Shown piece after piece: positions 2,497 through 31,215 of a stretch of 64,000 nucleotides of DNA. Origin of the DNA: an uncultured Bacteroides sp. (GTDB lineage: Bacteria; Bacteroidota; Bacteroidia; Bacteroidales; Bacteroidaceae); contig NZ_OY780936.1 in the NCBI RefSeq assembly GCF_963675905.1, forward strand, positions 124,001 to 188,000, in the 5' to 3' direction. The notes under the pieces are model-generated. The model made no database searches. It was not told the DNA's origin and saw only the letters and a list, made by a program, of their open reading frames with translations. The translations under genes were made by a program, and so were the position numbers. Each line of letters starts with the position of its first letter. Positions within the stretch are counted from its first letter, which is position 1.

Positions 2497-4224
2497 ATGA
2501 AAAATAGACTCGTGCTTTTACTGCTTGCTTTCTTAACTTTTTCTGCCTTTAAGACAGATCGTGTGATAACTGTTTTTATGATTGGTGACTCAACGATGGC
2601 TAATAAAACGATTGAAGGTGGAAATCTTGAGAGAGGTTGGGGGCATTTGCTTGCCGGATTCTTCAGCGAAGATATTCGAGTGGATAATCATGCACAAAAC
2701 GGACGCAGTTCTAAAAGCTTTATTGACGAAGGCCGTTGGGAAAAGGTAATTAGTCAGGTGAAAAAAGGAGATTATGTTTTTATTCAGTTTGGTCATAATG
2801 ACGAAAAGCCGGACTCTGCACGCCATACTGATCCAGGTACAACTTTCGATGCAAACCTACGCAGATTTGTAAACGAAACACGTGCCAAAGGAGGAATACC
2901 TGTTCTTCTTAATTCGATTGTCCGTAGAAACTTTATTCGTCCGCAAGATAAGGATATGAATAACGATGCTCGTAAAGAACCGGGCAAAGAACCTGTTGCA
3001 GTAGAAGGAAATACACTTTTCGATACCCACGGAGCTTATCTTGATTCTCCTCGCAGAGTTGCAAAAGAACTTGGTGTAGCTTTTGTGGATATGAACAAGA
3101 TAACACATGATTTGGTTGAAGGCATGGGACCTGTGGAGTCTAAAAAACTATATATGTGGGTAGCTCCTAATACTTGTCCTGTTGCGCCAAAAGGTCGTGA
3201 AGATAATACTCACTTAAACATATACGGAGCCCGCAAAATTGCCGGACTTACTATTGATGCAATAGCTAAAGAGACTCCCGAATTAGCTAAATATGTACGT
3301 CATTACGACTATGTGGTTGCTAAAGACGGAAGCGGAGACTTTTTCACAGTTCAAGAGGCTATTAATGCTATTCCCGATTTCCGTAAAGCCGCTCGCACCA
3401 CAATTTTGTTACGCAAAGGCGTGTATAAGGAAAAGCTGGTTATTCCTGCTTCAAAAATAAATGTTTCCTTAATTGGACAAGAAGGTGCTGTGATATCTTA
3501 TGACGATTATGCTTCGAAGAAAAATGTGTTTGGAGAGGAAAAATCTACCTCTGGTTCTGCAAGTTGTTATATTTATGCTCCCGATTTTTATGCTGAGAAC
3601 ATTACGTTCGAGAATACTTCCGGTCCCGTAGGACAGGCCGTTGCTGCTTTTGTTGATGGCGACAGAGTTATGTTTCGCAATTGCAGATTCCTGGGCTTTC
3701 AGGATACACTTTATACCTATGGAAAAGATAGCCGCCAATATTATGAAGATTGCTATATTGAAGGAACAGTCGATTTTATTTTCGGATGGTCAACTGCTGT
3801 CTTTAATCGTTGCACCATTAACAGCAAAGGCGATGGTTATATAGCTGCTCCTTCTACCGATATGGGCAAACCTTATGGATATCTTTTTTATGATTGCAAA
3901 CTCACTGCCGATGAGGAAGTGAATAAAGTATATCTGGCTCGTCCATGGAGGCCTTATGCACAGGCTGTTTATATTCGCTGTGAAATGGGAAAACACATTG
4001 TGCCCGAAGGATGGAACAACTGGGATAATACAGAAGCAGAGAGAAATAGTTTCTTTGCTGAATATCAAAGCAAAGGCGAAGGTGCCAGTAATGAAACAAG
4101 GGTTTCTTACTCTCATCAGCTCACTAGTCTGAAAGACTATGATATTGAAAAAGTACTGGCAGGGCAAGATAACTGGAATCCTGTAAAAAACGGGGTGGAC
4201 AAAACTGTAACTGTTGTACGCTGA
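2497..4224 (+). CDS. CE12 acetylesterase - CE8 pectin methylesterase fusion
   Basis: Two pectin esterases in one secreted protein of 575 residues. After a signal peptide, residues ~25-260 form an SGNH/GDSL domain of the CE12 (rhamnogalacturonan acetylesterase) type: GDST nucleophile block near 29, NGRSS near 68, GHND near 99 and a DNTHLN Asp/His block near 237. Residues ~271-560 form a CE8 beta-helix: QAVA near 381, QDTLY near 402, the catalytic DFIFG near 426 and the LARPW block near 481. The protein would remove acetyl and methyl groups together, exposing galacturonan to lyases. The upstream promoter is unclear; TAAACTTG near 2460 is one mismatch from the -7 consensus. Confidence 0.93.
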   Translation: MKNRLVLLLLAFLTFSAFKTDRVITVFMIGDSTMANKTIEGGNLERGWGHLLAGFFSEDIRVDNHAQNGRSSKSFIDEGRWEKVISQVKKGDYVFIQFGHNDEKPDSARHTDPGTTFDANLRRFVNETRAKGGIPVLLNSIVRRNFIRPQDKDMNNDARKEPGKEPVAVEGNTLFDTHGAYLDSPRRVAKELGVAFVDMNKITHDLVEGMGPVESKKLYMWVAPNTCPVAPKGREDNTHLNIYGARKIAGLTIDAIAKETPELAKYVRHYDYVVAKDGSGDFFTVQEAINAIPDFRKAARTTILLRKGVYKEKLVIPASKINVSLIGQEGAVISYDDYASKKNVFGEEKSTSGSASCYIYAPDFYAENITFENTSGPVGQAVAAFVDGDRVMFRNCRFLGFQDTLYTYGKDSRQYYEDCYIEGTVDFIFGWSTAVFNRCTINSKGDGYIAAPSTDMGKPYGYLFYDCKLTADEEVNKVYLARPWRPYAQAVYIRCEMGKHIVPEGWNNWDNTEAERNSFFAEYQSKGEGASNETRVSYSHQLTSLKDYDIEKVLAGQDNWNPVKNGVDKTVTVVR

Positions 4225-4256
4225 TTTTAAATCCGTCGTTATTTCTCTTTTTAATC

Positions 4257-4332
4257 CTTGTACAAAACAATTAATTCTTCTGTACAAAAGAATGTAATGT
4301 TTTGTACAGAAGAATTCAATCTTTTGTACAAG
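4257..4332. repeat. 76-bp palindromic repeat, copy A (four 22-bp units)
   Basis: Four TGTACA cores lie at an exact 22-base period. Each is flanked by short arms of the ATTCTT/AAGAAT or ATTGTTTT/AAAACAAT type, so each unit and the whole element can fold back. A near-identical copy is at 31000-31075. Copy A sits between the stop of the CE12-CE8 gene and the promoter of the hybrid sensor gene. Confidence 0.9.
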
Positions 4333-4402
4333 GGAATAACTATTCATCGAGGATCTTTTTTAATACATAACTATTAGATGAAAATGGTACTCTTTATTTG
4401 TG

Positions 4403-4410
4403 TATTTTTG
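4403..4410 (+). promoter_or_regulatory. Bacteroides -7 box (TATTTTTG) for the hybrid sensor gene
   Basis: An exact TAnnTTTG match 33 bases before the ATG at 4444. I see no clear -33 TTTG at the right distance, so confidence is moderate. Confidence 0.55.
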
Positions 4411-4443
4411 AACCATGTTTTTATAAGCTAATAGATGCACACT

Positions 4444-30562: not shown

Positions 30563-30705
30563 AACAATTTAATCGATTCTGTACATAAGCATTTCTTAAA
30601 AGTTATTTTTATATAATCAAGATGAAGAACTCTCCACGGATAGTAAGCATACTTTTCTTTTTCAGCACTATTTTTTTTGATTACTATATGTGTTTCTTAA
30701 AAAAA

Positions 30706-30895
30706 TAATCTCATCCCTCACTCCTGTAATGCTAAAGATTTGATTGTTAGGTTGTATGCTATGGATTTGATAATCTCATCCCTCACTCATCCCTCACTGA
30801 GTGAAATCTAAATCAGTAGTTATTAGATAGTTAATGAAGTGGTGGATAAAGACAAAAAAAACTTATCCCTCACTATTTGGGGCCATCTCTCACTT
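30706..30895. repeat. CCCTCACT-rich repeat region in a 730-base gap
   Basis: TAATCTCATCCCTCACTC occurs twice exactly (30706-30723 and 30771-30788). Further ATCCCTCACT copies start near 30789 and 30865, and a TCTCTCACT near 30885. A related set on the opposite strand is at 34454-34571. No open frame is credible here. Confidence 0.7.
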
Positions 30896-30999
30896 TTTCG
30901 TTTAAAAAATAGCTGTTTTGTAGCTATTATATGTCCCGTTATGTTTCCGGAATTCTAATAAGAAGAAAACAAAAGAACATCCTGAGATATTATATATTT

Positions 31000-31075
31000 C
31001 TTGTACAAAACAATGCATTCTTCTGTACAAAAGAATTAATTGTTTTGTACAGAAGAATGCATTCTTTTGTACAAG
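31000..31075. repeat. 76-bp palindromic repeat, copy B (four 22-bp units)
   Basis: Same element as 4257-4332, with the same length, the same four TGTACA cores at a 22-base period and differences confined mostly to the two-base centres between units. Here it lies in a divergent intergenic region upstream of the radical SAM gene. Confidence 0.9.
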
Positions 31076-31215
31076 ATAATATGAATTGCTGGTTTATAAT
31101 TAAAAAATGAACGCGGAAGATGAATTAAGATGAAAGGATAAAATGGAAATTAAACCTTAGAGAGCAATTATTATTGTAAATGAAGAAATCGCGAACCTTA
31201 TTTAAATAAAATACT

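What the first reader, a model, noticed from the sequence alone, without database searches (positions are those of the whole stretch)
4257..4332. Two near-identical 76-bp elements of four TGTACA units at an exact 22-bp period
Copy A (4257-4332) and copy B (31000-31075) have the same length and the same four TGTACA cores 22 bases apart. They differ mostly at the two-base centres between units. Each arm is complementary to another arm, so changes appear to keep pairing. Twenty-seven kilobases separate them and no IS or gene links them. A two-turn (22-bp) period places all cores on one DNA face, which suits cooperative protein binding; RNA or DNA hairpins are also possible. I know no named element like this.
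Basis: seen in the sequence. Interest (0 to 1): 0.72.

Follow-up and report, generated by a model that had tools for sequence, protein, structure and literature searches.

The report
HU-family proteins' dedicated chromosomal site arrays
The two odd repeats belong to a set of about 55 similar DNA arrays spread round this Bacteroides chromosome, and they are most likely the dedicated landing sites of one particular HU-type DNA-packing protein, one of many such proteins that each seem to have a site sequence of their own.

Summary
Copies A (4257-4332) and B (31000-31075) belong to about 55 family-1 arrays found in the 4.17-Mb genome, nearly all with four TGTACA cores at exactly 22 bp. They are intergenic, even round the chromosome, at least 12.7 kb apart, and 11 of 14 fetched Bacteroides luti arrays lie at orthologous sites. 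Flanks carry a fading two-sided 22-bp GC/AT wave. Hairpin covariation is not supported. The lead to a binder: one copy sits 70-137 bp before the start codon of a small HU-family gene (Pfam HU-HIG, PF18291; genome position 1207222). A close orthologue (84-100% identity) was found in exactly the 7 of 149 genus genomes with 24-60 such arrays, each time with the array before it. Other HU-HIG paralogues have their own arrays of different sequence at their promoters: 22 of 40 against 7 of 261 control genes. In a distant Bacteroidales genome the dispersed GATGTACATC arrays also match the array before one HU-HIG gene; in two further lineages no match was found. Conclusion: paralogue-specific operator and chromosome-organising sites of HU-HIG proteins. 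Binding is inferred. BrickBuilt of Porphyromonas gingivalis may be a published relative.

The parts
4257..4332 (+). Array copy A: four TGTACA cores at 22 bp, family-1 arms (oriented + by the AAAC/AAAG rule)
31000..31075 (+). Array copy B: four TGTACA cores at 22 bp, family-1 arms (oriented +)
4177..4256 (.). Left flank of copy A: zone in which the 54-copy average shows the fading 22-bp GC/AT wave (a property of the set, not shown for this single copy)
4333..4412 (.). Right flank of copy A, same average wave
30920..30999 (.). Left flank of copy B, same average wave
31076..31155 (.). Right flank of copy B, same average wave

Best explanation
Each array is a four-dimer binding site for one particular HU-superfamily protein of the HU-HIG type (PF18291): here the 146-aa protein encoded at G000:C1:1207222-1207659, about 1 Mb from the window. 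Each palindromic TGTACA unit would hold one symmetric dimer; the 22-bp (two-turn) period puts four dimers on one DNA face, bends the AT-rich spacers in phase and lets DNA be wrapped about a dyad, reaching some 80 bp beyond the array on each side. The copy at the protein's own promoter gives autoregulation; the other ~54 found, evenly spread and at least 12.7 kb apart, act mainly as chromosome-organising sites rather than as gene switches. Shown by sequence: copy number, spacing, conserved position in B. luti, orthologue/array co-occurrence, arrays at HU-HIG promoters. Inferred: binding, dimer count, wrapping, autoregulation, nucleoid role.
For: (1) A family-1 array lies at -137/-136 to -70 of the ATG of this HU-HIG gene in own genome and in the six other genomes with its orthologue (8 gene copies: 6 with four exact cores, 2 with three). 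(2) Orthologue at 84-100% identity in exactly the 7 of 149 genus genomes that hold 24-60 exact arrays; in the other 142 nothing above 32% identity reached E 1e-15. (3) HU-HIG paralogues have their own upstream arrays of different sequence: by eye 10 of 15 full-length own genes; by scan (score >=10) 8 of 15 own and 14 of 25 in G062 against 7 of 261 control genes (Fisher 8e-17); at score >=12, 16 of 40 against 7 of 261 (6e-11); against controls with free upstream space 22 of 40 against 7 of 107 (7e-10). Two of the 7 control hits are copies A and B. In G539 9 of 15 (no control of its own). (4) Family-2 arrays (at least 9 in own genome) match the array before the HU-HIG gene at 2110723 and, more loosely, the one at 1836063. 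(5) In G539 (isolate STF2_138) the dispersed GATGTACATC arrays match the array about 155-250 bp before HU-HIG gene L375. (6) In a Prevotellaceae contig (L109) the fetched TGTACA array ends 70 bp before an HU-HIG gene. (7) More similar HU-HIG proteins have more similar arrays: within-genome Mantel r 0.25, p 0.014. (8) Family-1 arrays are uniform round the chromosome (Rayleigh p 0.94), smallest gap 12,751 bp, reached by 0.02% of 5,000 random sets.
Against: No binding data. The 7-of-149 co-occurrence may be one clade, so it is not seven independent events. G062's dispersed ATCTATAGAT arrays have no match in the 3-kb loci of any of its 29 HU-HIG matches; Colivivens' GGTGTACACC arrays have none before its 3 longer HU-HIG genes (draft). 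Among the 148 loci L093-L240 only L109 and L206 hold an HU-HIG gene, so most array lineages were not linked to one. Of 31 upstream arrays that pass the scan, 25 have period 22 or 23, 6 have 21 or 24; 11 beat shuffles for palindromes; a few look like low-complexity chance hits. 18 of 40 HU-HIG genes of own genome and G062 show no scan hit. Similarity of arrays of similar proteins could also come from recent gene duplication. The gap CV is only borderline (p 0.065). Of 15 bin_67 array loci only 4 map firmly to own array loci. The structure model failed (pLDDT 35).
Confidence: 0.7

Rival explanations
1. The arrays bind another protein (for instance an unlinked regulator or an Lrp-type octamer with four dimers), and HU-HIG genes are merely frequent targets of it.
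For: A ring of four dimers would fit four sites at 22 bp (recalled geometry of the Lrp family). HU-HIG proteins carry no proven sequence specificity.
Against: Many HU-HIG paralogues have an array of their own sequence, which would need as many separate regulators. Neither of the two AsnC/Lrp matches of the genome has an array within the 1.5 kb scanned on each side.
Confidence: 0.15
2. Non-autonomous mobile repeats (MITE- or REP/RAYT-like) that spread as sequence parasites; their presence next to HU-HIG genes is secondary.
For: Some copies share flanks of 150-650 bp at about 69-93% identity, so copying of whole stretches has occurred; BrickBuilt was published as a MITE.
Against: No sharp shared boundary: conservation fades with the 22-bp wave. 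11 of 14 B. luti array loci map to own array loci and the 10 aligned arrays are 93-100% identical (loci were fetched by exact cores). Random jumping would rarely leave every gap above 12.7 kb and would not put different arrays at different HU-HIG paralogues. RAYT genes were not searched for, and empty sites were not compared.
Confidence: 0.15
3. RNA or cruciform hairpins act, for example as attenuators or RNA stabilisers.
For: Units are near-palindromic; in several HU-HIG leaders the array lies between a promoter-like word and the ATG, so it may be transcribed.
Against: No pairing covariation beyond two central columns in 54 copies; mispairs are kept; no Rfam match in the window; 13 of 62 own arrays lie between convergent ORFs.
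Confidence: 0.06
4. Plasmid-type iterons left in the chromosome.
For: 22-bp TGTACA direct repeats lie before initiator-like genes on Pontibacter and Adhaeribacter contigs, in two of them with a ParA-like gene further on (gene names recalled from the sequences, no family search run).
Against: Those are directional direct repeats; window copies have pectinesterase, two-component, peptidase and radical-SAM neighbours, about 55 copies and no initiator gene beside A or B.
Confidence: 0.02

Closest known systems
BrickBuilt minisatellite/MITE of Porphyromonas gingivalis (PMC4596501; abstract, section list, section 5 and search passages read)
   Same: Order Bacteroidales (recalled); intergenic; 19 dispersed loci; repeat unit of 23 nt, within the 22-23-bp range common at HU-HIG promoters; one locus, BrickBuilt_14, lies between PGN_0871 (-) and PGN_0872 (+), listed as a DNA-binding protein of PF00216.
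   Different: Described as 1 to 22.8 direct repeats with leader and tail subunits and small inverted-repeat ends and as a transposable element; no binder proposed in the parts read. Family 1 has a fixed number of four near-palindromic units and no sharp ends. No sequence comparison was made.
Dedicated chromosomal site systems MatP/matS, SlmA/SBS, Noc/NBS (recalled)
   Same: Tens of dispersed sites for one DNA-binding protein with a chromosome-level role.
   Different: Other protein folds; single sites instead of four-unit arrays; site sequence widely conserved, whereas here it changes from paralogue to paralogue.
HU/IHF (DNABII) proteins; P. gingivalis HU PG0121 with its 77-bp inverted repeat (PMC3969353; abstract, section list and Introduction read)
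   Same: Same superfamily; the Introduction cites E. coli HU as negatively regulating hupA/hupB, with an inverted repeat overlapping the hupA promoter.
   Different: HU is described there as binding non-specifically, IHF as the sequence-specific homologue. Paralogue-specific tandem palindrome arrays are not described in the parts read.
Replication iterons of 22 bp (recalled)
   Same: Tandem 22-bp repeats, some even with TGTACA.
   Different: Direct repeats beside an initiator gene on plasmids, single locus.

Membership tests
HU-HIG cognate array (class proposed here) | Same array family directly upstream of an HU-HIG gene in the same genome | tested here: met
   7 of 7 genomes with the family-1 orthologue
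HU-HIG cognate array (class proposed here) | 3-4 units at 22-23 bp | tested here: met
HU-HIG cognate array (class proposed here) | Specific binding by the protein | not testable with these tools
   needs EMSA or ChIP
HU-HIG cognate array (class proposed here) | Every dispersed array family has a cognate HU-HIG gene | tested here: inconclusive
   found for family 1, family 2 and G539; not found for G062 and Colivivens; G030 and G060 not tested
BrickBuilt | Tandem 23-nt direct repeat | tested here: not met
   period exactly 22, units near-palindromic
BrickBuilt | Leader and tail with terminal inverted repeats | tested here: inconclusive
   flank conservation fades without a fixed end; some copies have inverted GCGGGATGTTT/AAACATCCCGC flanks
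REP/BIME with RAYT | Y1/RAYT transposase gene in the genome | not tested
Structured RNA | Compensatory base changes | tested here: not met
   2 of 45 column pairs above shuffles, 7 below, at p<=0.05
Structured RNA | Match to an Rfam family | tested here: not met
   no match in the window at the gathering threshold
Plasmid iterons | Replication initiator gene beside the repeats | tested here: not met
   neighbours of A and B by Pfam

The most novel reading that the evidence does not exclude
Bacteroidales encode a diversified set of sequence-specific HU-type chromatin proteins (HU-HIG). Each reads its own array of about four units at two-turn period, autoregulates through it, and nucleates a dyad-symmetric wrapped particle of 200 bp or more. 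In several lineages one paralogue's array has been multiplied into dozens of evenly spaced chromosomal sites, so that related species organise their chromosomes with different protein/site pairs.
Probability: 0.4. Interest if true: 0.92.

Novelty: new variant of a known kind. Interest (0 to 1): 0.8.

Why it matters
HU proteins are usually thought of as general DNA benders. A family of 15-25 HU paralogues per genome, many with a recognisable private site, would help explain their multiplication in Bacteroidales, give these bacteria a mappable chromosome-architecture system, and offer a natural series for studying how DNA recognition and its sites change together. It may also give species-specific repeats such as BrickBuilt a testable function.

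Tried and rejected
Hairpin/covariation reading: tested on 54 copies and dropped. Lrp/AsnC as binder: two matches, no array near. Gene-specific regulation shared between distant lineages: adjacent genes shared with Colivivens, CAMAMB and other distant genomes are few, about what chance gives (my estimate, not computed). Viral origin: 2 contigs in the viral collection, both looking like simple tandem repeats. Neighbour enrichment by Pfam: PF00216 and one glycosyl-hydrolase domain were the most frequent, 3 of 124 neighbours each; this was the clue, weak alone. A first search of the fetched loci with three HU-HIG queries found only one further locus beside the query loci, L206. Papers: searches for TGTACA with Bacteroides, REP with Bacteroidetes, HU-HIG, the IHF superfamily, nucleoid proteins with B. 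thetaiotaomicron, HU-like with inverted repeats, 22-bp with Bacteroidales/nucleoid, and HU family with upstream repeats listed no paper on these arrays that I recognised (listings only, a very broad one); three papers were opened: PMC4596501, PMC3969353, and PMC5771137 (passages only). The Mantel test over all genomes (p 0.0006) mixes base composition; the within-genome version is the one to use. Structure prediction from two sequences: no usable model, so no fold search was made. No solved HU-HIG structure by sequence: best match an HU at E 0.11.

Rows dropped and limits: of 62 own arrays, 54 family-1 arrays were used for alignment statistics (left out: 6 family-2, 1 singleton at 3143429, the 5-core copy at 2610545). 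The listing is cut among its 3-mismatch places, so degenerate copies may be missing from the count of 55 and from the spacing test. Of 20 own HU-HIG matches 15 were used, of 29 in G062 25, of 22 in G539 15 (fragments, canonical HU or short flanks left out). In one search some genomes had more candidates than were scored. The promoter-like words had no control. Gene arrangement rests on mechanical ORFs of 90 aa or more.

Full report
OBSERVATION. Copies A and B are as described: 76 bp, four TGTACA cores with a 22-bp period. Chance gives none, and a scan of twelve periods over the window has hits only at 22 bp and only at these two places. The window is G000:C1:124001-188000 of a 4,166,832-base single-contig genome. 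Its genus is Bacteroides by inference: genus member G034 carries the same 242,523-base contig and array as the B. pyogenes locus L168.

COPY NUMBER. The exact four-core pattern occurs 57 times in the genome, control 1. Reading the fetched regions gives 62 arrays: 55 of the window's family (54 with four units, one of these with a changed last core, and one with five units), 6 of a second family with the same core and period but arms such as AAGATTG/CAAACA and mostly three units, and one singleton at 3143429. Three further family-2 places are listed but were not fetched. Because the listing is cut among 3-mismatch places, degenerate copies may be missing. Own arrays are intergenic (3 of 62 overlap a short mechanical ORF) with neighbouring ORFs in all arrangements: 22 --, 19 ++, 13 convergent, 8 divergent. 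The 55 family-1 arrays are uniform round the circle (Rayleigh p 0.94); the smallest gap is 12,751 bp, reached by 0.02% of 5,000 random sets, while the gap CV (0.81 against 0.97) is borderline at p 0.065.

ANATOMY. Outside the array, averaged over 108 flanks of 54 copies, GC-rich positions recur at about 19, 42 and 62 bp and AT-rich positions at about 11, 32, 54 and 76 bp from the last core, fading by 80-90 bp. The array is thus the centre of a two-sided, 22-bp-phased stretch of some 200 bp or more. Half-sites are of two main kinds, AAAC (X) and AAAG (Y): 24 of 54 copies follow XYYXYY or its reverse, and 15 have X in the middle spacer only. The middle spacer therefore keeps a mispair: one column is mispaired in 49 of 54 copies. 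Over all 45 column pairs tested, 2 pair more often than shuffles and 7 less often at p<=0.05. So the near-palindromes are not hairpins under selection for pairing. In one B. luti orthologue the middle spacer is inverted relative to this genome (L111 against 2984395), which points to small inversions between palindromic cores.

CONSERVATION. All 14 fetched B. luti array loci were compared: 11 map by their flanking genes to array loci of this genome (10 aligned, arrays 93-100% identical; one maps to the window and was not aligned), one match is weak, two have no counterpart among the fetched regions. Of 15 loci of the more distant isolate bin_67, four map firmly with 79-89% identical arrays, four weakly, seven not at all. 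These loci were fetched by exact cores, so kept cores are no evidence by themselves. In the genus, 13 of 149 genomes hold at least one exact four-core array, seven of them 24-60. In the order, 3 of 392 genomes do, own genome and two with plain tandems.

GENERALITY. In 100-kb samples of three other genus genomes the period scan found 1-2 arrays each at 22 bp (in G030 also one hit each at 21 and 23 bp; none at the nine other periods) with other sequences: AACTAGTT-type in G060, ATCTATAGAT in G062, TTTATWATAAA in G030; the second G030 hit is weak and AT-rich. ATCTATAGAT arrays recur in G062 at 17 places with up to 3 mismatches, all between 0.2 and 1.9 Mb; the G030 core at two places. G072 and G418 have ACATGT arrays. 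The architecture is shared, the sequence is not.

THE LINK TO HU-HIG. Among 124 genes next to own arrays, HU-type proteins (PF00216) were the joint most frequent family, 3 genes. The genome has 20 HU-HIG (PF18291) matches. A period scan round them found arrays at six; by eye 10 of 15 full-length genes have one within about 150 bp of the ATG: TGTACA family 1 (1207222), TGTACA family 2 (2110723 and, looser, 1836063), CTGCGCAG, GGTCGCGACC, GACCCGGGTC, ACACCCGGGTGT, TTTGATGTACATCAAA, CTCGACCGAG-type and TCTAGA-type. With a fixed threshold (score >=10) 8 of 15 own and 14 of 25 G062 genes are positive, against 7 of 261 control genes, two of which are the window's own copies (Fisher 8e-17); at score >=12 it is 16 of 40 against 7 of 261 (6e-11). 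Against controls with free upstream space it is 22 of 40 against 7 of 107 (7e-10). In G539 9 of 15 are positive, without a control of its own. Of the 31 positives 25 have period 22 or 23; 11 beat shuffles for palindromes. A -7-like word (Bacteroides consensus, recalled) occurs within 175 bp of the ATG in 8 of 10 own cases, with a -33-like TTT in 4 of 10 (no control).

THE COGNATE PAIR. A close orthologue (84-100% identity) of the HU-HIG protein at 1207222 was found in exactly seven of 149 genus genomes: own, G003, G026, G050, G074, G088, G101. These are exactly the seven with 24-60 arrays. In all of them, in eight gene copies, the array lies at -137/-136 to -70 from the ATG, with four exact cores in six copies and three in two. 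The seven may be one clade, so this is strong co-inheritance but not seven independent events.

PREDICTION TESTS. If dispersed arrays are sites of one HU-HIG protein, one copy should lie before its gene in other lineages too. In G539 (contigs of isolate STF2_138) it does: HU-HIG gene L375 has, about 155-250 bp upstream, four GATGTACATC units at 22 bp that match the dispersed arrays of that genome. In a Prevotellaceae contig the fetched array ends 70 bp before an HU-HIG gene (L109), but no further copies of that genome were seen. In G062 none of the 29 HU-HIG loci carries the ATCTATAGAT core, and in the Colivivens draft none of three longer HU-HIG genes carries GGTGTACACC. Among loci L093-L240 only L109 and L206 hold an HU-HIG gene. 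So the rule held for family 1, family 2 and G539, and was not found in two lineages. Within genomes, similar HU-HIG proteins have similar arrays (r 0.25, p 0.014, 155 pairs).

MECHANISM. Most likely one HU-HIG dimer sits on each palindromic unit; four dimers at two-turn spacing bend the DNA in one direction and seed a wrapped particle; at the promoter this controls the gene itself; elsewhere it marks or folds the chromosome at intervals. Binding, stoichiometry, wrapping and function are inferences. Regulation of neighbouring genes remains possible at many copies, less so at the 13 between convergent ORFs.

KNOWN RELATIVES. BrickBuilt of P. gingivalis is a 23-nt tandem repeat at 19 intergenic loci, one of them (BrickBuilt_14) next to a PF00216 gene, PGN_0872 (PMC4596501, Table 1). 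The paper treats it as a MITE; the words nucleoid, palindrom- and histone do not occur in its main text. I made no sequence comparison. For HU itself, autoregulation and an inverted repeat at the hupA promoter are cited in PMC3969353 (Introduction). My searches listed no paper that I recognised as linking HU-HIG proteins to arrays (calls named in Tried and rejected).

Noticed in passing
window 30700-30900: Left of copy B the words CATCCCTCACT / TATCCCTCACT recur several times. Clusters of similar words (GATCTAGC, AGTCTAGC, TAGTAGCA/ATCTGCTA) lie within 900 bp of 10 of 62 own arrays, against 0 of 35 background windows with any such cluster. An unexplained second repeat class beside some arrays.
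   Followed up: partly
L108, L112, L116, L177, L163: 22-bp TGTACA direct repeats before initiator-like genes, in L112 and L116 with a ParA-like gene further on (names recalled): plasmid iterons, a look-alike of the arrays. L163 is filed as Streptomyces cinereus.
   Followed up: partly
L111 against own array 2984395: The 16-bp middle spacer between two cores is exactly inverted between B. luti and this genome.
   Followed up: no
G062:C1:206097-1894438: All listed ATCTATAGAT arrays lie in the first half of the 4.0-Mb chromosome, unlike the even spread of family 1.
   Followed up: no
L168:1908-2067 (B. pyogenes) and own 3069006: A TGTACA array lies near homologous genes (secDF by my recall) in both, although the arms differ; B. 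pyogenes has eight nearly identical units.
   Followed up: no
L034:1324-1386: Fluoride riboswitch (RF01734, 50.6 bits) near the family-2 array at 288224.
   Followed up: no
own 3643124, 3956346, 1180930 and 392612, 2038092: These array loci share 550-650 bp of sequence at 72-93% identity, so whole intergenic stretches have been copied between places.
   Followed up: partly
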